Source: Cytophagia bacterium
Lineage (GTDB): Bacteria > Bacteroidota > Bacteroidia > Cytophagales > Spirosomataceae
Length of the DNA stretch: 64,000 nucleotides
NCBI GenBank assembly: GCA_004293645.1
Contig: REAB01000065.1
Coordinates: 1 to 64,000, forward strand
Direction of reading: 5' to 3'
Positions 2,733 to 63,042 of the stretch are shown here, piece by piece; positions within the stretch are counted from its first letter, which is position 1; each line of letters begins with the position of its first letter. The position numbers and the translations under genes were made by a program. Below the pieces are notes generated by a model, which was given only the letters and a program-made list of their open reading frames with translations, made no database searches and was not told where the DNA came from.

Positions 2733-3475
2733 TTTCGCATATCGCGGAGTAGTTTGTTGGCAAAAATAAACTCGTTGAGTTCTGGCACGTCCGAATGAAT
2801 GATATTGGTATTGTTGCCTTCCCAGAGTTTTTTGCCTTTGTACAAAAATAGCACTTGGTCGCCCATTTCCAGCACCGAGTTCATGTCGTGCGTGATAACC
2901 ACCGTCGTAATGTTGTATTCGTCGGTTATTTCTTTAATCAATTCATCAATTTTTACCGACGTGAGCGGGTCGAGGCCAGAGTTGGGTTCATCACAAAACA
3001 AGTATTTGGGATTCATCACAATAGCCCGGGCTATGCCCACGCGCTTTTTCATGCCGCCGCTTAGTTCAGAAGGCATTCGGTCAATGGCGTGGTCGAGCCC
3101 CACCCGCGAGAGGCAAAAGCGAGCGCGTTCGTTTTTTTCGGTTTCCGAAAAATCGGTGAGCATATCGAGCGGAAAACGCACATTTTGGAGCGATGTTTTG
3201 GAGTCGAACAACGCCCCGCCCTGAAACAAAACGCCCATGTCGCGCCTTATTTCTTTGCGCACTTCGTCCGAATTTCCCCAAAAATCGCGCCCATTGTAAA
3301 GCACGGTGCCTGCGTCGGGTTTAATGAGGCCAATCAAACATTTGAGCAACACACTTTTGCCCGTACCGCTACCGCCAATCACCAGGCTGTTGTTGCTGGG
3401 CATAAACGTACCCGACACATTGTCCAAGATGGTGCGTCCTTCAAAACTTTTTGATATACTCGAAAACTCAATCAT
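2729..3475 (-). CDS. ABC transporter ATP-binding protein, MlaF-type
   Basis: 248 residues from the ATG at 3475, chosen because MIEFSSISKSFEGR is the normal N-terminus and because this ATG overlaps the tatC TGA as ATGA. It carries Walker A (GGSGTGKS, residues ~34-41), the signature LSGGMKKRVGIARA (~138-151), Walker B (LFCDEP) and the Asn-containing DEPNSGLDP typical of MlaF/Ttg2A ATPases, which drive lipid transport between membranes. The cognate MlaE permease and MlaD protein are not in the window; the gene downstream is convergent. So the partner must be encoded elsewhere, and the MlaF label is family-level. Confidence 0.88.
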   Translation of the reverse strand: MIEFSSISKSFEGRTILDNVSGTFMPSNNSLVIGGSGTGKSVLLKCLIGLIKPDAGTVLYNGRDFWGNSDEVRKEIRRDMGVLFQGGALFDSKTSLQNVRFPLDMLTDFSETEKNERARFCLSRVGLDHAIDRMPSELSGGMKKRVGIARAIVMNPKYLFCDEPNSGLDPLTSVKIDELIKEITDEYNITTVVITHDMNSVLEMGDQVLFLYKGKKLWEGNNTNIIHSDVPELNEFIFANKLLRDMRN

Positions 3476-4323
3476 AACGTTGGGTTTTGCTGTTCTAATT
3501 TGTTTTGCCGCTCCACCCAGCCCGACACCCAAATGCTAATTTCGTAAAGCAACGTAAGTGGTGTTGCCACCAATACTTGGCTCAACACGTCGGGCGAGGG
3601 CGTGATAATGGCCGCCACAATGAGAATAACCACAAAAGCATGGCGGCGATATTGACGCATGAAACGGGGGTTTAAAAAGCCAACCTTCGACAGCACAAAA
3701 GCCACCACGGGCAACTGAAAAGTAACTCCACAAGCCAACGTAAGCAACGAAATGAGGCTCACATAAGACGTAACATCGAACTGGTTTTTGATGGTAGGGT
3801 CTAATTTAAAATTAGCTAAAAAATTGATAGCCAGCGGCGAAACGATGTAGTAGCCAAAAAGAACGCCCGAAAAAAACAAAAACGTAACGTAAAAAACAGC
3901 ACCGCGCGCTGCCTTGCGCTCCGAAGATTTAAGGCCCGGTTTGATAAACCGCCACACTTCCCAGAAAGCGTAAGGAAACGCAAACAACAAGCCAATAATA
4001 ACCGCCGAAAGCATAGCCATCGAAAACTGGCCCGACATTTCCCGGCTTTGTAGTTCAAAATCAAGGTTTTGAATGCACAGGCCATCTGCCCCCGTAAAAG
4101 CAGCTATTTTGCACAACATTCGGTAGGTCCAAAAAGACGAGCGCGACGGGGCTAAAATAACAACATCGTATATTTTTTCAATAAAAGCGAAAGCAACAAT
4201 GGTAAAAGTTAAAATTGCGCCCACCGCCCGAATAATGTGCCAGCGTAATTCTTCAAGGTGCGACAGGAAAGTCATTTCTGCTCCTTCTTCGGCGTTTTCG
4301 TCGGTAGATTGATCTAATGGCAT
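3472..4323 (-). CDS. tatC: Sec-independent protein translocase subunit TatC
   Basis: 283 residues, six predicted membrane segments. TatC is the inner-membrane receptor that recognises twin-arginine signal peptides of folded exported proteins. The conserved N-terminal cytoplasmic HLEELRWHIIRA (residues 21-32) is present, as are a FAFPYAFWEVWRFIKPGL stretch before a membrane helix and a conserved C-terminal TPSPDVLSQ. The N-terminus has an acidic extension of about 15 residues and a loop near residues 65-90 is longer than in E. coli TatC (258 residues). No tatA is adjacent. It is coupled by ATGA overlap to the ABC ATPase. Likely clients in this window are the LD-carboxypeptidase and the DUF1501 protein, both with twin-arginine leaders. 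Confidence 0.95.
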   Translation of the reverse strand: MPLDQSTDENAEEGAEMTFLSHLEELRWHIIRAVGAILTFTIVAFAFIEKIYDVVILAPSRSSFWTYRMLCKIAAFTGADGLCIQNLDFELQSREMSGQFSMAMLSAVIIGLLFAFPYAFWEVWRFIKPGLKSSERKAARGAVFYVTFLFFSGVLFGYYIVSPLAINFLANFKLDPTIKNQFDVTSYVSLISLLTLACGVTFQLPVVAFVLSKVGFLNPRFMRQYRRHAFVVILIVAAIITPSPDVLSQVLVATPLTLLYEISIWVSGWVERQNKLEQQNPTL

Positions 4324-4467
4324 CGTGATAAATTAAATTTCAATGCACAAAGTTACGTTTTGCCGCCGTTTCTAAATCAAAAAATCACGAATTTTAACAT
4401 TCTAAGTGGGTATTATGCGGCCTTTTTACAACTTTTGAATATCTTTGGTCGAACAAAATATAAATCC

Positions 4468-4902
4468 ATGCACCCACTGGCCGATAAAATCACCACTTTT
4501 CATTCGCCTTTTGCCGATACCGAAGCCCAAAAAGCGGCTCTAAAAGAAGAATCGGACGCGCTCAAACAGCAGCTGGAAGGGCAAATAGATGGCTTCAAAA
4601 CCGATGCCACGCGCATTGGCAAGCAGGCCTTGGTGATTGGCGGTAGCATTATGGCTGTATATTTGCTGCTCGATTTATTATTGCCCAACAACAACAACGA
4701 CGAGACCGACCAACAAGGCAGTAACCCGTTGGCCGTTGGTTCGTCTAAAAACAGTACCCAATTCCCTTGGCTTGCCAAGTCGGTCAGTGCTTATGCTGTG
4801 ACTTGGCTGCTGGGTTTGGCGCGTGAAAAATTAATTGACTTTTTGGCTACTCAGAACCATAGCAATGCCGTTCCCAATACAAACTCAACTTCGGAAACAT
4901 AA
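4468..4902 (+). CDS. Small membrane protein, function unknown
   Basis: 144 residues from the ATG at 4468; the frame stays open upstream to 4360 but that part lacks coding character, and a -7-like TATCTTTG lies at 4440-4447, 20 bases before this start. Residues ~25-50 are charged and helical (coiled-coil-like), a membrane segment follows (LVIGGSIMAVYLLLDLLL), then an Asn/Asp-rich loop (NNNNDETDQQ), then a second hydrophobic helix (AYAVTWLLGLA). The two-helix layout resembles small envelope or holin-like proteins but no family is recognised. Its 3' end overlaps the GGGP synthase start by 38 bases. Confidence 0.72.
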   Translation: MHPLADKITTFHSPFADTEAQKAALKEESDALKQQLEGQIDGFKTDATRIGKQALVIGGSIMAVYLLLDLLLPNNNNDETDQQGSNPLAVGSSKNSTQFPWLAKSVSAYAVTWLLGLAREKLIDFLATQNHSNAVPNTNSTSET

Positions 4903-5629
4903 ACAAACAGGCAAAAAATCGTTTGCCGTTTTGCTCGATCCCGACAAGGTAGATTTAGCATCGTTTCCCTATTTATTGGCCGAAAGCGTACAACAGGGCG
5001 TGGATTATTTTTTTGTGGGGGGCAGCCTCATTACCCAATACGCCATGCCCGAAATGATTGCGGCCATTCGGAAGCACACCCAAATTCCGGCAATATTGTT
5101 TCCAGGTAGTAGTTTGCACATCGAACCTACCGCCGATGCCATCTTGCTGCTGTCGCTTATTTCGGGCCGAAACCCCGAACTGCTCATTGGCCAACACGTT
5201 ATTGCCGCACCAATTCTCAAACGCAGTGGGTTGGAGGTATTGCCAACGGGCTATATGTTGGTAGAAAGTGGCCGTTCTACTACTGTTTCGTACATTAGCA
5301 ACACCACGCCCATACCGCACGACAAGCCCAGCGTAGCCGCTTGTACGGCCATGGCGGGCGAGATGCTGGGCTTGCAGCTCATGTACTTGGACGCGGGCAG
5401 CGGCGCACAAAAACCCGTTTCGGCGGCTATGATTGCGGCCGTCCGCCAAGCCGTAGATACGCCCATTGTGGTAGGCGGCGGCATCAACAGCATTGACAAA
5501 GCCTACGCCGCCCTCGAAGCAGGGGCCGACGTGATTGTGGTGGGTAATGGCATCGAAGAAAACCCCGATTTACTCCCCGAAATAGCCCAAGCAGTTCGCG
5601 CTTTCAATGAGCGAATTGCGACATATTGA
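4865..5629 (+). CDS. Geranylgeranylglyceryl phosphate synthase (PcrB/GGGPS family)
   Basis: 254 residues, TIM barrel. The family joins a polyprenyl diphosphate to sn-glycerol 1-phosphate. Visible motifs are LLDPDKVDL (near residue 21), FVGGSLITQ, FPGSS, YLDAGSGAQKPVS and the phosphate-binding VVGGGINS followed by GADVIVVGNGIEEN. In archaea this makes the ether lipid backbone; bacterial group II enzymes in Bacteroidetes are known as active GGGP synthases with an unclear physiological role. The start at 4865 overlaps the upstream gene by 38 bases, so the two are likely co-transcribed. The G1P source (an AraM/G1PDH) is not in the window. Confidence 0.9.
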   Translation: MPFPIQTQLRKHKQTGKKSFAVLLDPDKVDLASFPYLLAESVQQGVDYFFVGGSLITQYAMPEMIAAIRKHTQIPAILFPGSSLHIEPTADAILLLSLISGRNPELLIGQHVIAAPILKRSGLEVLPTGYMLVESGRSTTVSYISNTTPIPHDKPSVAACTAMAGEMLGLQLMYLDAGSGAQKPVSAAMIAAVRQAVDTPIVVGGGINSIDKAYAALEAGADVIVVGNGIEENPDLLPEIAQAVRAFNERIATY

Positions 5630-5662
5630 CAAAAAATATCTACAACAAAACCTTCTAAATCC

Positions 5663-6637
5663 ATGAAAATCAACCCATTACTGCTCTTTTTTTGTGTGTT
5701 GCTGCATGGTGGCTTTCAAGCCATTGCCCAAAAAAACAAAACCATTAAAGTGTTAATCGTTGACGGCCAAAACAACCACGTACAGTGGCCCAAGATTACG
5801 TACATGATGAAACAATATTTGGAAGAAACGGGCAAGTTTTCGGTCAATGTTGAGCGCAGCTATTATACTTGGAAAGGCGATGAATACCTCCAAAAATACA
5901 AAATTGCGGGTTTGAGAAATACCCAAGCATTAGAAAAGCCACGCCCCGATTCGAGTTTTCGGCCAAATTTTGCGCAGTATGACGTGGTGGTTTGCAATTT
6001 TGGTTGGAATGCCGCCGACTGGCCCGCCCAAACCCAACAAGATTTTGAGCAGTTTGTGGCCAAAGGCGGCGGTTTGGTAGTAGTACACGCGGCCAACAAC
6101 TCGTTTCCGCTTTGGCCTGCCTATAATCAAATGATTGGATTGGGCGGCTGGGGCGACCGCAGCGAAAAAGATGGTCCGTACGTGTATTACGACCAAGAAG
6201 GGAAACTCGTGCGCGACACAGAACCTGGCAAGGCGGGGTCGCACGGGGCGCAAAATCCTTATCCTATCAACATCAGAAACCCTAAACACCCCATTACCAA
6301 AGGAATGCCCGCAACTTGGATGCACGCCAAAGACGAACTCTACGACCACCTGCGCGGCCCCGCCCAAAATATGGAAGTATTGGCAACGGCTTTTTCGCCC
6401 AAAAGCAACAAGGGGGCCGACCGCCACGAGCCTACGCTCTTTACCATTCAGTACGGCAAAGGACGCGTGTTTCATACTGTACTTGGCGACTCAGACTACT
6501 CCATTGAGTGCGTGGGTTTTATTGTTTCGCTGCAACGCGGCACGCAGTGGGCTGCTACGGGCAAGGTAAATATTCCGATTCCTGCCGATTTTCCAACCGA
6601 AACACAGGCGAGTTCACGCAAGTTTGTTGAAAAATAA
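5663..6637 (+). CDS. Secreted ThuA-domain protein
   Basis: 324 residues. A 22-residue signal peptide (hydrophobic LLLFFCVLL, cleavage near AIAQ) precedes one ThuA-like domain of the class I glutamine amidotransferase-like fold: VLIVDGQNNH at the start, VVVCNFGWNAADWP, GGGLVVVHAANNSFP and the conserved HAKDELYDHLRGP region, then GRVFHTVLGDSDYS. ThuA-like proteins in Bacteroidetes are periplasmic and associated with carbohydrate breakdown; in other bacteria the family links to trehalose utilisation. No sugar-use genes flank it, so substrate is unknown. Confidence 0.87.
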   Translation: MKINPLLLFFCVLLHGGFQAIAQKNKTIKVLIVDGQNNHVQWPKITYMMKQYLEETGKFSVNVERSYYTWKGDEYLQKYKIAGLRNTQALEKPRPDSSFRPNFAQYDVVVCNFGWNAADWPAQTQQDFEQFVAKGGGLVVVHAANNSFPLWPAYNQMIGLGGWGDRSEKDGPYVYYDQEGKLVRDTEPGKAGSHGAQNPYPINIRNPKHPITKGMPATWMHAKDELYDHLRGPAQNMEVLATAFSPKSNKGADRHEPTLFTIQYGKGRVFHTVLGDSDYSIECVGFIVSLQRGTQWAATGKVNIPIPADFPTETQASSRKFVEK

Positions 6638-24581: not shown

Positions 24582-24656
24582 ATATATACACGCAGAATTG
24601 ATTATGAAAAATAACCAGACTGCTTAAAGAATGACCATTTTTAAAATCTTTAGAGC

Positions 24657-24685
24657 TTTGTGACAAAAGAAAACAAGTATCTTTG
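24657..24685 (+). promoter_or_regulatory. Bacteroidetes-type promoter for the restriction-modification genes
   Basis: TTTG at 24657-24660 and TATCTTTG at 24678-24685, 17 bases apart, match the -33/-7 form used by Bacteroidetes primary sigma. The methyltransferase ATG at 24691 is five bases after the -7 box, about where transcription would begin, so the mRNA may be leaderless or nearly so. Confidence 0.6.
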
Positions 24686-24690
24686 AGCTT

Positions 24691-25449
24691 ATGGAAGCAT
24701 TTAAAAATATTAATAAAATCATTAGTCTCTTTAGTGGGGCAGGTGGAATGGATATCGGTTTTGAGATGGCTGGCTTTGAAACGGTTGTAGCGGTAGAATA
24801 CGATATTTCATGTTGTGATACACTTAGAAAAAACCGCCCTCAGTTACCTATAATTCATGGTGATATTTCCAAAATTACCACTGCGGAAATATTGAGGGTG
24901 GGAGGTCTGAAACCGACAGAAGCTGCTGTTGTAGTTGGAGGGCCTCCGTGTCAATCTTTTAGTTTGGCGGGAAAAAGGATGGGAATGAATGACCCAAGAG
25001 GAAAGCTTGTGTTAGAGTTTATAAGGGTTGTTAAAGAAAGCTTACCTAAGGTATTTGTAATGGAAAATGTCCGAGGAATGGTAAATTGGCAAGATGGAAA
25101 AGCAATTGAGGCGATTATGAGTGAAATTTCCGAACCAATTTATTTTGAAGGGACAGAATATATGTATAAAGTAAAAAAAGCTATACTTAATGCTGCAGAT
25201 TATGGCGTTCCTCAATATAGAGAGCGTGTGTTTATCATTGGTAATCGCTTAAATAAGAATTTTGAGTTTCCTGAACCTACACACACAGATTTACGAGGAG
25301 AAACATTAAATATTTTTGGCCATAACAAACAAAAAATCAGAACTGTTGGGGATGCGATAAGTAATTTACCCAAGGCAGATGCCCCTTCTGAAACGGCCTT
25401 AAGAGTATCTGAAACGATCAAAGAAAGAATTATAAAACATGGATATTAA
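24691..25449 (+). CDS. C5-cytosine methyltransferase, alpha part (motifs I-VIII), M.AquI-like
   Basis: 252 residues. It has motif I FSGAGGMDIGF (14-24), motif IV GGPPCQSF with the catalytic Cys87, motif VI ENV (125-127) and motif VIII QYRERV (175-180), then ends without motifs IX-X. Those are supplied by the next gene, whose ATG at 25439 lies inside the last codons of this one in the +1 frame. M.AquI is known to be encoded as two overlapping genes cut at the same place, with, as I recall, about 248 and 139 residues. The downstream endonuclease is AvaI/BsoBI-like, the same specificity group as AquI, so a working two-chain enzyme for CYCGRG is likely. A frameshift is the alternative. Confidence 0.9.
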   Translation: MEAFKNINKIISLFSGAGGMDIGFEMAGFETVVAVEYDISCCDTLRKNRPQLPIIHGDISKITTAEILRVGGLKPTEAAVVVGGPPCQSFSLAGKRMGMNDPRGKLVLEFIRVVKESLPKVFVMENVRGMVNWQDGKAIEAIMSEISEPIYFEGTEYMYKVKKAILNAADYGVPQYRERVFIIGNRLNKNFEFPEPTHTDLRGETLNIFGHNKQKIRTVGDAISNLPKADAPSETALRVSETIKERIIKHGY

Positions 25450-25846
25450 GAATCATCAACAAACTGCTCATTCTCCTTCGACACTTGAGAAAATAGAACT
25501 CGTTCCAATTGGTGGAAAATTGGCAGATATTACCCAAACCTTTGGCTCTACTTACAGAAGACTTGACCCCAATAAACCTTCACCAACAGTAACCAGAAGC
25601 GGGTATCGTGATTTTATTCATCCACACGAGAATAGAATGTTAACAGTTAGAGAATTAGCTTGTTTACAAACTTTTCCACTTGATTGGGAGTTCGTTGGCA
25701 CTCGCTTAGATTCTTACAGCAGTAAAAGAGTGGTTGCAATGACCCAGTTTGGTCAAGTTGGGAACGCAGTTCCACCATTGTTAGCAAATGCGATTGCAAG
25801 TGCTATAAAAATTCAATTTTTTGAAAACGATAGCAATGATAAATAA
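25439..25846 (+). CDS. C5-cytosine methyltransferase, beta part (motifs IX-X), M.AquI-like
   Basis: 135 residues. It supplies the end of a C5 methyltransferase: part of the target-recognition region (GGKLADITQTFGSTYRRLD, SGYRDFIHPHENR), motif IX RELACLQTFP (71-80) and motif X QVGNAVPPLLANAIA (106-120), which pairs with motif I to close the AdoMet site. It cannot methylate alone. The start ATG overlaps the alpha gene's final 11 bases, allowing coupled translation. Its own stop overlaps the endonuclease start region, so all three genes form one tight unit. Confidence 0.9.
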   Translation: MDIKNHQQTAHSPSTLEKIELVPIGGKLADITQTFGSTYRRLDPNKPSPTVTRSGYRDFIHPHENRMLTVRELACLQTFPLDWEFVGTRLDSYSSKRVVAMTQFGQVGNAVPPLLANAIASAIKIQFFENDSNDK

Positions 25847-26801
25847 TTATGTTCAGAGAGCTAATGACCTCGTAACTACTCGTGAATCACACAGAAATGG
25901 TTTTTTAGAATACGCCCTCAGAAAAAGCAAAGAATCAGTTCCATATGTTGACAAAACCAAAGTCTTGAAACTTATTCTTGAACAAGAAACAAAAAACCCA
26001 CGTGATATTTTAGCACTTGAAAAAATAAAAAACAGTTGTTATGCAGCCGCAGGAGTTTCCGTCAAAGCAAATAATTATTTAAGCACAGATGACTTAAATG
26101 ACATTCTTCTTGAATTTATTAAAGAATTTCTTGAACCTGCTGGTAATCAGTATATTGACGAACTTATTTATCGCTATTTGCTGACATTAGGCGATGCGCT
26201 TGGCGGTAAAATGCGAAATTTAGTGGGCGCTATCGCTAATGAAAAATTGACGCGGTTTGTTGTGTCGCAGCTACAGGTGCTTGAGTTAGATTTTGCTTAT
26301 TACAACAAAGCAGCTAAGACTTGGCTTGATGGTAAAGATTATAGAATAAACCAAGTTTCGGATATTCGGGCAATTCAATGGACTTTAAAAACAAATGAAA
26401 AACGGCAGCTCATCTATAACCTGAACGTTCCGATTGTGAACAAAAATATTGATTTGGTTATCCTAAATTGCCACACGAAAGATTTGACTGGTGAAGAGTT
26501 TAAAAACATAACTCAAAACCCTGTAAACTATAAAATACTGGGGGAGTTAAAAGGTGGAATAGACCCTGCAGGTGCAGATGAACATTGGAAAACAGCAAGT
26601 ACGGCATTGGCAAGAATAAGAGAGAGTTTCAAAAAATACGATATAAATATTCCGATTGTATTTATTGGTGCTGCGATTGAAATAAATATGTCGAAAGAGA
26701 TTTTTGCTCAATATACCGATGGGCGAATTACCAACTGTGCAAATTTAACGATTGATAATCAATTCATAAGTTTATGTAACTGGTTAGTAACAATGGTGTA
26801 A
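25836..26801 (+). CDS. Type II restriction endonuclease, AvaI/BsoBI family
   Basis: 321 residues from the ATG at 25836, which overlaps the beta methyltransferase stop; the frame is open five codons further up. The active site reads NKNIDLVIL (Asp206), then GELKGGIDPAGADEHWKTA with Glu237, Lys239 and His250. In BsoBI the corresponding residues are D212, E240, K242 and the proposed catalytic H253: the Glu-Lys and Glu-His spacings (2 and 13) are identical. Length also matches (BsoBI about 323). It should cut CYCGRG. One 60-base line of this gene counts 32% GC against 62% in the next host gene, a sign of transfer. Confidence 0.93.
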   Translation: MINNYVQRANDLVTTRESHRNGFLEYALRKSKESVPYVDKTKVLKLILEQETKNPRDILALEKIKNSCYAAAGVSVKANNYLSTDDLNDILLEFIKEFLEPAGNQYIDELIYRYLLTLGDALGGKMRNLVGAIANEKLTRFVVSQLQVLELDFAYYNKAAKTWLDGKDYRINQVSDIRAIQWTLKTNEKRQLIYNLNVPIVNKNIDLVILNCHTKDLTGEEFKNITQNPVNYKILGELKGGIDPAGADEHWKTASTALARIRESFKKYDINIPIVFIGAAIEINMSKEIFAQYTDGRITNCANLTIDNQFISLCNWLVTMV

Positions 26802-26876
26802 CTACATTATCAACAACTCTTCTCATTCGTTCGCATCTGCAATACTAATCTTCGAATAAGCATTTACAGCTCGCCC

Positions 26877-60971: not shown

Positions 60972-61661
60972 ATGAATAATCGAAGAAAAGTAACAGCAAA
61001 ACAGATTTATGACATGCTGTTGAATGAGTTTAAAATCAAGCAACAAATAGGCAGTGTAGAGATAATTTTGGGAGGTATTTCGGCAAAATATGGCGGTAAA
61101 GATGCGATTGGCGATTTGTTGCAAGAGTGGCTTGCCGAATGGTTAAAGCAAAACAACATTTATTTCAGAACACGAGCGAATACGCAGGAGTTTCCCGATT
61201 TTTTGCTTGCCGAAGATGATAAAAGTGGGTTCTTGGAAATAAAAACGTTTGATGGTAGTGCAACACCAGCGTTTGACATTGCCAATTTTGACTCTTACAA
61301 CAAATCCTTACTTATCAAACCCGAGCGGCTTGATGCAGATTATTTGATTTTGAGCTACAAGATGGTAAATGCTGTTTTGAGTATAGAAAACGTGTGGCTA
61401 ATGAAAGTTTGGGAAATGGCAGGAGATTCGGGCAAAAATCCTGTTAATATGCAAACTAAAAATGGGCAACCTTACAACCTAAGACCGATAAAGTGGTATG
61501 CTAAAAAAGCTAAAAATAAGCCATTTACCGATAAGTTAAGTTTTATAACTGCCATTGCTGAAACGCTTAGGAAATATCCTTACAGTACAGGTAGTTACAA
61601 CGATAATTGGTTGGAAAAAGTAAAAGAGAGATATTTTGCGAACACAGAGCTTAGATTGTAA
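60972..61661 (+). CDS. Type II restriction endonuclease, NgoBV-like
   Basis: 229 residues from ATG 60972 (the frame is open to 60939). It carries VEIILGGISAKYGGKDAIGDLLQEWLAEWL, then FRTRANTQEFPDFLLAE with Asp/Glu residues, GFLEIKTFDGSATPAFDIANFDSY (E-x-K of a PD-(D/E)xK site) and RLDADYLILSY. These match my memory of the NgoBV endonuclease family, which cuts GGNNCC. It lies tail to tail with a C5 methyltransferase, an expected partner, the last 11 bases overlapping. AT-rich relative to host genes. Confidence 0.88.
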   Translation: MNNRRKVTAKQIYDMLLNEFKIKQQIGSVEIILGGISAKYGGKDAIGDLLQEWLAEWLKQNNIYFRTRANTQEFPDFLLAEDDKSGFLEIKTFDGSATPAFDIANFDSYNKSLLIKPERLDADYLILSYKMVNAVLSIENVWLMKVWEMAGDSGKNPVNMQTKNGQPYNLRPIKWYAKKAKNKPFTDKLSFITAIAETLRKYPYSTGSYNDNWLEKVKERYFANTELRL

Positions 61662-63042
61662 CAGATAACAATTCACTTTCGGCCTCTACTATTTCATAAT
61701 TATCGCTTTGCCAAACATCTAAAATTCTATCACTGATTGCCTTAATGACAGGAACTACAACCGTATTTCCTAATAAATCAAAGGCCAAACTTTCTTTGAC
61801 TGGTATTTCGTAGCTTTCAGGATAACCAAACAAGCGTAACCCTTCCCGTTTAGTTAATTTTCTAAGACCATTTCCGTCTGGAACTACAATTTTCACCATA
61901 TCGGTTGCTACCAAAGTGGGAGCAATTTCAAATGGGCTTAAAATTTTATTGATTTCAAAACTTAGCTTTCCAGTTACAATATTATACCCTTTGGGCTTTG
62001 TTTCATCGTAAACGCGAGAACTAATTACACCATTTTCTGTATTTTCATTTATCAATTTTTTAGGATATTCAAATCTTAGATACCCTTTTTCAACCAAGTC
62101 GTCTAAAAGTACTTTAACATCAATACTTTCAAACAAATTATTGGTCGGAAAAAATGACTGAATTTGTTCGAGCGTTAGGGGCATTCCGTCCATCCAATCA
62201 ATTCCTATTTCACTTGCCCATTGTTTTTTTCTTCGTTCTTTGAATAACCTATTCAACAAATAAATCTGCTCTTTTGAACATTCTCCTTTTATTCCAATAT
62301 CCCAACTATGAATGTTGTTCTCGCCGCCACGCTTATCTTTTATTGATTTTCCATAGAGTTCTTTTATTGTAAAATGTGAAAGTAGTCGCCTCGTAAAATC
62401 GGTGTTCATGGTAGGTTTTCCTACTTCTAAAATATCTTTTATAACTTTGTAAGTAGGCTCAAAACCTGTTAACGAGACCTTTCTTTTGGGAGTGGCTCTT
62501 TTCTTTGTCCCAACTATAAAAACTCTTTTTCTTGATTGCGGAACCCCAAAGTGTACACTGTCCAAAACTTTCCAAGTAACTTGGTATTCCAGTTCATTTT
62601 CAAGTTTCTCCAAAATTATTCGAAGTGTGCGCCCTATTTCATCGTTTTTATTTTCTAAATCGTGTTTTACCAAGCCTTCAACATTTTCAAGAATGAATCC
62701 TTCTGGCTGATGAAATCTTATAATACGTTCAATTTCAAAAAATAGCGTTCCTCGTGTATCAGCAAAACCATTCCTTTTACCACTTGCACTAAATGGTTGG
62801 CAAGGAAAACCACCAAACAAAAAATCGAACGGAGGAATATCTTCGTTCTTAACTTTAAAAATATCGCCAACAAAATGCTCATGCTGGTGGTTGTGTTTAA
62901 GCGTCTGAATAGCATAAGGTTTAATTTCAGAAGTTAACACACATTCGGTTTCAATGCCTTTTTCTTTACAAGCTTGTTCAAAACCAAGTCTAATACCTCC
63001 AAGACCCGCGAATAAATCTATAAATTTTAGTTTATTTCTCAC
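61651..63042 (-). CDS. C5-cytosine DNA methyltransferase (NgoBV-type partner)
   Basis: 463 residues with all C5 motifs in one chain: I FIDLFAGLGGIRLGF (8-22), IV FGGFPCQPFSASG with catalytic Cys81, VI FILENVEGL (116-124), VIII FGVPQSRKRVFIVG (near 167-180), IX LTKREGLRLFGYP, X LLGNTVVVPVIKAI. A long target-recognition region (~190-395) is present. The start codon is GTG at 63042, overlapping the TGA of the DUF6471-type gene (GTGA), which couples its translation to that gene. It protects the host from the endonuclease downstream; specificity GGNNCC is inferred from the partner. Confidence 0.94.
   Translation of the reverse strand: MRNKLKFIDLFAGLGGIRLGFEQACKEKGIETECVLTSEIKPYAIQTLKHNHQHEHFVGDIFKVKNEDIPPFDFLFGGFPCQPFSASGKRNGFADTRGTLFFEIERIIRFHQPEGFILENVEGLVKHDLENKNDEIGRTLRIILEKLENELEYQVTWKVLDSVHFGVPQSRKRVFIVGTKKRATPKRKVSLTGFEPTYKVIKDILEVGKPTMNTDFTRRLLSHFTIKELYGKSIKDKRGGENNIHSWDIGIKGECSKEQIYLLNRLFKERRKKQWASEIGIDWMDGMPLTLEQIQSFFPTNNLFESIDVKVLLDDLVEKGYLRFEYPKKLINENTENGVISSRVYDETKPKGYNIVTGKLSFEINKILSPFEIAPTLVATDMVKIVVPDGNGLRKLTKREGLRLFGYPESYEIPVKESLAFDLLGNTVVVPVIKAISDRILDVWQSDNYEIVEAESELLSVTI

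What the first reader, a model, noticed from the sequence alone, without database searches (positions are those of the whole stretch)
24691..25846. Split C5 methyltransferase in the M.AquI arrangement
Seen: motifs I-VIII on a 252-residue chain and IX-X on a 135-residue chain, with an 11-base overlap and an internal ATG in the +1 frame. Known: M.AquI, whose endonuclease belongs to the AvaI/BsoBI group, is made as two chains cut at the same place. The downstream endonuclease here is of the same group, so the split appears inherited rather than a frameshift.
Basis: partly seen in the sequence, partly recalled or inferred. Interest (0 to 1): 0.6.

Follow-up and report, generated by a model that had tools for sequence, protein, structure and literature searches.

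The report
Two-chain AquI-type DNA methyltransferase system

Summary
Alpha (24691-25449, 252 aa, C5-methyltransferase motifs I-VIII) and beta (25439-25846, 135 aa, recognition region and motifs IX-X) overlap by 11 nt, beta in the +1 frame. An intact AvaI/BsoBI-family endonuclease (25836-26801) follows, itself overlapping beta by 11 nt. Thirteen bacterial loci with the endonuclease, one more from a genome survey, and phage contigs without it carry the same two-chain enzyme cut at the same point; the overlap was 11 nt in all 17 loci measured. One is Picosynechococcus PCC 7117, with chains of 248/139 aa, the lengths I recall for M.AquI. No close single-chain relative was found: beta scores 262-270 bits inside the family, at most 70 outside. 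Endonucleases paired with the split enzyme form one fully supported clade; nearly all others examined have an N4-type methyltransferase. The operon is a low-GC insertion (flanking genes adjacent in 11 of 11 relatives). CYCGRG is depleted in the host (observed/expected 0.32-0.38 against 0.72-0.83 in two relatives), consistent with activity. It is a new member of a known kind; the phylum-wide spread, invariant overlap and phage orphans seem less well known. Methylation itself was not testable.

The parts
24658..24685 (+). candidate Bacteroidota-type promoter: TATCTTTG ending 5 nt before the alpha ATG, with a TTG ending 30 nt before the ATG; a transcription start this close to the ATG would give a nearly leaderless mRNA
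   Evidence: TTTG lies 3-5 nt before the alpha ATG in 6 of 6 Bacteroidota loci, full TAnnTTTG in 4 of 6; the motif occurs about 0.9 times per kb per strand in the window, so this is suggestive only
24691..25449 (+). alpha chain of the split C5 methyltransferase (252 aa; motifs I-VIII, catalytic Cys87 in PPCQ, E125 in ENV)
25439..25449 (+). 11-nt overlap ATGGATATTAA: beta start codon and alpha stop codon
   Evidence: 11 nt in 17 of 17 loci
25439..25846 (+). beta chain (135 aa; target-recognition region plus motifs IX-X)
25836..25846 (+). 11-nt overlap of the endonuclease start with the beta stop
   Evidence: 11 nt in window and L030-L033, 8 nt in L121, 0 in L036
25836..26801 (+). AvaI/BsoBI-family type II restriction endonuclease, 321 aa, residues D206/E237/K239 aligned with BsoBI D212/E240/K242
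   Evidence: PF09194 E 5.8e-107; BsoBI 1dc1 E 2e-84
24582..26876 (.). inserted low-GC segment (about 35-39% G+C against mostly 46-54% in the near flanks) between an LPG_synthase_TM-domain gene and a cytidylyltransferase-like gene that are adjacent in relatives

Best explanation
This is a horizontally acquired type II restriction-modification operon of the AquI kind, expected to act on CYCGRG. Alpha carries the AdoMet-binding and catalytic lobe. Beta carries the target-recognition region and motifs IX and X, the last of which completes the AdoMet pocket in single-chain relatives. Neither chain should be active alone; together they form a heterodimeric C5 methyltransferase that protects the host from the downstream AvaI/BsoBI-type endonuclease. 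Beta is most likely made by ribosomes that finish alpha and restart at the ATG 8 nt back (translational coupling), and the endonuclease is probably coupled to beta in the same way. Shown: gene anatomy, intact catalytic motifs, conserved split and overlap, co-inheritance with the endonuclease, insertion site, site depletion. Inferred: heterodimer, coupling, CYCGRG specificity, activity.
For: Complementary PF00145 coverage and intact motifs. Chain ends match a single-chain alignment with no missing block. Same cut and 11-nt overlap in 17 of 17 loci, from Bacteroidota, Cyanobacteriota, Pseudomonadota, Fibrobacterota, Kiritimatiellota and phage contigs. The beta spacer before the conserved [IL]KNH varies by 0, 2 or 5 codons while the overlap length does not. 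The alpha residue covering the beta start varies (His, Tyr, Phe) but its codon always ends in T, keeping ATG or TTG (product of T-fractions over 16 loci about 0.006, not corrected for shared ancestry). An in-frame stop lies 6 nt before the beta ATG in the window. Endonucleases with the split enzyme form one clade, SH-aLRT 100, against N4-linked ones; enzyme and endonuclease trees share the main groups. BsoBI catalytic residues kept. CYCGRG observed/expected 0.32-0.38 in the host, 0.72-0.83 in two relatives. A paper states that M.AquI (CYCGRG) is two polypeptides, motifs I-VIII and IX-X (PMC3404938), and another that AquI is an AvaI isoschizomer (PMC8066212).
Against: No methylation, expression or binding data. 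Specificity is inferred by homology; the site depletion uses about 317 kb of the host and two control genomes, and other palindromes (GRCGYC, GRGCYC) are depleted even more in this host. No Shine-Dalgarno-like site precedes beta in the window, as expected for reinitiation but not proof of it. The beta model alone has low confidence, and the complex was not modelled.
Confidence: 0.9

Rival explanations
1. Programmed +1 frameshifting at the end of alpha joins alpha and beta into a single chain of about 380 residues, wholly or in part.
For: Reading through in the +1 frame gives a seamless join (HGY-K-NHQQTAHS) that aligns well with single-chain enzymes.
Against: The codon before the stop is TAT, TAC or CAC in different loci, and none re-pairs well in +1 (inference from codon-anticodon rules); a beta start codon is kept in 17 of 17 loci; the RNA around the junction is less structured than its shuffles, z +2.06; the two M.AquI chains are described as separate polypeptides.
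Confidence: 0.06
2. A recent frameshift (mutation or assembly error) has broken a single-chain methyltransferase gene, leaving a dead or dying enzyme.
For: The split is a +1 frame change, which a single indel could give.
Against: Same junction in 17 loci of independent assemblies and distant taxa, all motifs intact, beta 71-91% identical to the window's across the family; no close single-chain relative.
Confidence: 0.01
3. The genes are real but the system has a different specificity from CYCGRG, or is not active in this host.
For: Specificity and activity were not measured. Identity to BsoBI is moderate.
Against: BsoBI catalytic residues aligned and invariant; beta, which holds the recognition region, is 78% identical to the Picosynechococcus beta; CYCGRG is depleted in the host.
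Confidence: 0.08

Closest known systems
M.AquI / AquI system (Agmenellum quadruplicatum, Synechococcus PCC 7002)
   Same: Two-chain C5 methyltransferase with motifs I-VIII on the larger and IX-X on the smaller chain, cut in the variable region; AvaI-isoschizomer endonuclease. The Picosynechococcus PCC 7117 locus L035 (alpha 248, beta 139 aa) shows the same 11-nt overlap; identities to the window are alpha 63%, beta 78-81%, endonuclease 53%.
   Different: Window beta starts directly with MDIKNHQQ, L035 beta has five extra residues (MDIKNVHIKNH). Host is a Bacteroidota bacterium.
AvaI and BsoBI systems
   Same: Same endonuclease family (PF09194).
   Different: Partner methyltransferase: the other AvaI/BsoBI-family loci examined carry a roughly 475-aa SPPY-type (N4) enzyme; that AvaI and BsoBI themselves use N4 enzymes is from memory.
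M.EcoHK31I (YGGCCR)
   Same: Natural two-polypeptide C5 methyltransferase.
   Different: There only motif IX is on the small chain and motif X stays on the large one (PMC3404938); here IX and X are both on beta.
M.HaeIII / M.HhaI
   Same: Alpha motifs and fold; best PDB match of the alpha model is M.HaeIII 1dct.
   Different: Single chains.

Membership tests
M.AquI-type split C5 methyltransferase | motifs I-VIII on the large chain, IX-X on the small chain, cut in the variable region | tested here: met
M.AquI-type split C5 methyltransferase | sequence clusters with the Picosynechococcus locus rather than with single-chain enzymes | tested here: met
   the tree had only six single-chain rows, support 91 between the groups
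M.AquI-type split C5 methyltransferase | linked AvaI-isoschizomer-family endonuclease | tested here: met
M.AquI-type split C5 methyltransferase | both chains needed; active as a complex on CYCGRG | not testable with these tools
   site depletion is only indirect
M.AquI-type split C5 methyltransferase | direct alignment with the deposited M.AquI sequence | not tested
   no PCC 7002 record was retrieved; PCC 7117 (L035) was used in its place
AvaI/BsoBI restriction endonuclease | PF09194 over full length with the D/E/K catalytic residues | tested here: met
   that these BsoBI residues are catalytic is from memory
M.EcoHK31I-type two-chain methyltransferase | motif X retained on the large chain | tested here: not met
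   motif X is on beta
programmed +1 frameshift gene (prfB-like) | slippery P-site codon with a stimulatory element | tested here: not met
   TAT/TAC/CAC before the stop, no structured RNA, no upstream SD in the window

The most novel reading that the evidence does not exclude
The split enzyme is an ancient single-origin fission kept, together with an invariant 11-nt stop/start overlap, across at least five bacterial phyla and in phage contigs. The overlap itself would be the selected element, a translational-coupling device that fixes the alpha:beta ratio. Phages have taken the two-chain enzyme without the endonuclease, presumably to protect their DNA from AvaI-type restriction.
Probability: 0.5. 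Interest if true: 0.45.

Novelty: new member of a known kind. Interest (0 to 1): 0.33.

Why it matters
Natural split C5 methyltransferases are rare; only two characterised cases are named in the source read here. A conserved family with one invariant junction gives natural break points and partners for the split-methyltransferase tools used in targeted methylation. It also makes testable whether the overlap sets subunit balance in restriction-modification operons. The endonuclease tree shows a single exchange between an N4-type and a split C5-type partner within one endonuclease family.

Tried and rejected
Plasmid and phage record collections held no close relative of beta, best about 42%. A search centred on a locus id failed. 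The original M.AquI paper is not held. The first outgroup extraction missed several single-chain enzymes, so the tree has only six; the junction alignment with seven single chains and pairwise scores were used besides. Considered and rejected: assembly frameshift, degraded gene, programmed frameshift, EcoHK31I-type split.

Full report
Observation. Alpha (24691-25449) and beta (25439-25846) are two open frames that overlap in ATGGATATTAA (25439-25449), beta being in the +1 frame. PF00145 is divided between them, profile positions 1-201 and 245-323. Alpha holds motifs I, IV, VI and VIII; beta holds IX and X. A 321-aa endonuclease of PF09194 (E 5.8e-107) starts at ATG 25836, again overlapping by 11 nt; its only PDB relative by sequence is BsoBI (E 2e-84), and D206, E237 and K239 align with BsoBI D212, E240 and K242.

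Relatives. A scan of one genome per GTDB species with an alignment of eight endonucleases kept the 80 best of 436 loci. Thirteen of these encode both alpha and beta, and a further one, L034, shows only the end of beta at a contig edge; the others have no such C5 enzyme in the stretch held. Hosts are Bacteroidota (L030-L033), Cyanobacteriota (L035 Picosynechococcus, L036 Microcoleus), Pseudomonadota (L037, L038, L043, L044), Fibrobacterota (L042) and Kiritimatiellota (L046, L048). A survey of 395 genomes of the window's class added L121. Six phage contigs of 20 to 297 kb carry the two-chain enzyme without the endonuclease nearby; the endonuclease scan of the same collection returned three other contigs only.

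Junction. The overlap is 11 nt in 17 of 17 loci counted (window, 13 bacterial loci, L121 and two of the phage contigs); the other four phage contigs have the same junction. Beta starts with ATG in 16 and TTG in one. The alpha stop is always TAA. The last alpha codon is TAT, TAC or CAC, and the residue over the beta start codon is His, Tyr or Phe, always with T in the third position. The spacer between the overlap and the conserved [IL]KNH of beta is 0, 2 (L121, phages) or 5 codons (L035). The overlap length is thus kept while the neighbouring protein sequence changes, which favours a role in translation. In the window the beta frame is closed by a stop 6 nt before its ATG. There is no Shine-Dalgarno-like site before beta in the window and the RNA is unstructured there. 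Restart after termination is the simplest mechanism; this is an inference.

Single chains. The nearest single-chain enzymes found are 31-34% identical over the full length. In alignment the cut lies just before the conserved Asn-His of the segment that leads into the target-recognition region, and nothing is missing between the two chains. Of 74 other C5 enzymes in viral contigs, 72 run through this point in one frame. In a tree with six single-chain enzymes the split enzymes lie on one side, support 91; this tree is small and its outgroup branches are long.

Endonuclease tree. Sixteen endonucleases linked to the split enzyme form one side of a branch, SH-aLRT 100; 72 others have an N4-type enzyme and seven were not classified (of those seven, the two plasmid loci are annotated with a DNA methyltransferase gene directly downstream). 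The Bacteroidota, gammaproteobacterial/Pelagibacter and Fibrobacter/Kiritimatiellae groups appear in both the endonuclease and the methyltransferase tree, so the genes have largely travelled together.

Host. The operon has about 35-39% G+C in a region of mostly 46-54%. In the 11 relatives examined the two flanking genes are neighbours, so the operon is an insertion. CYCGRG occurs 51 times where 134-160 are expected in 317 kb of the host; in two relatives observed/expected is 0.72-0.83. This is consistent with a system that has been active in the host, with the caution that other palindromes are depleted there too.

Structure. The alpha model (pLDDT 78) matches M.HaeIII and M.HhaI. Beta alone is predicted with low confidence, which is compatible with a chain that needs its partner but may equally reflect the shallow alignment.

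Verdict. The finding is right in observation and interpretation: a further member of the M.AquI kind. The spread of the family, the fixed overlap and the phage orphans go a little beyond what I could find described; the literature search was limited to open-access text.

Noticed in passing
L113-L118 (IMG/VR contigs of 20-297 kb), alpha 3229-3999 and beta 3989-4408 or 3989-4432: Phage contigs carry the two-chain AquI-type methyltransferase with the same 11-nt overlap but no AvaI/BsoBI endonuclease; a nearby ORF in L118 is an ATP-dependent DNA ligase (PHROG 114).
   Followed up: partly
window 60972-63042: A second restriction-modification pair in the same window: an NgoBV-family endonuclease (PF09564, E 8e-47) convergent with a single-chain C5 methyltransferase of 463 aa.
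   Followed up: partly
genome G000 (317 kb sampled): GRCGYC is depleted about 20-fold (16 observed, 293 expected) and GRGCYC about 5-fold, far more than in two relatives; the genome has about a dozen PF00145 genes, so other active restriction systems are likely.
   Followed up: no
window 24678-24690 and the same place in L030-L033, L121: TTTG lies 3-5 nt before the alpha ATG in all six Bacteroidota loci, with TAnnTTTG in four; this would put transcription start near the ATG and give a nearly leaderless mRNA.
   Followed up: partly
L138 (IMG/VR 203-kb contig), 3992-6118: A single-chain C5 methyltransferase of about 700 aa whose N-terminal part is 49% identical to alpha, with repeated NH segments and two motif IX-X-like blocks; perhaps a multispecific phage enzyme.
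   Followed up: no
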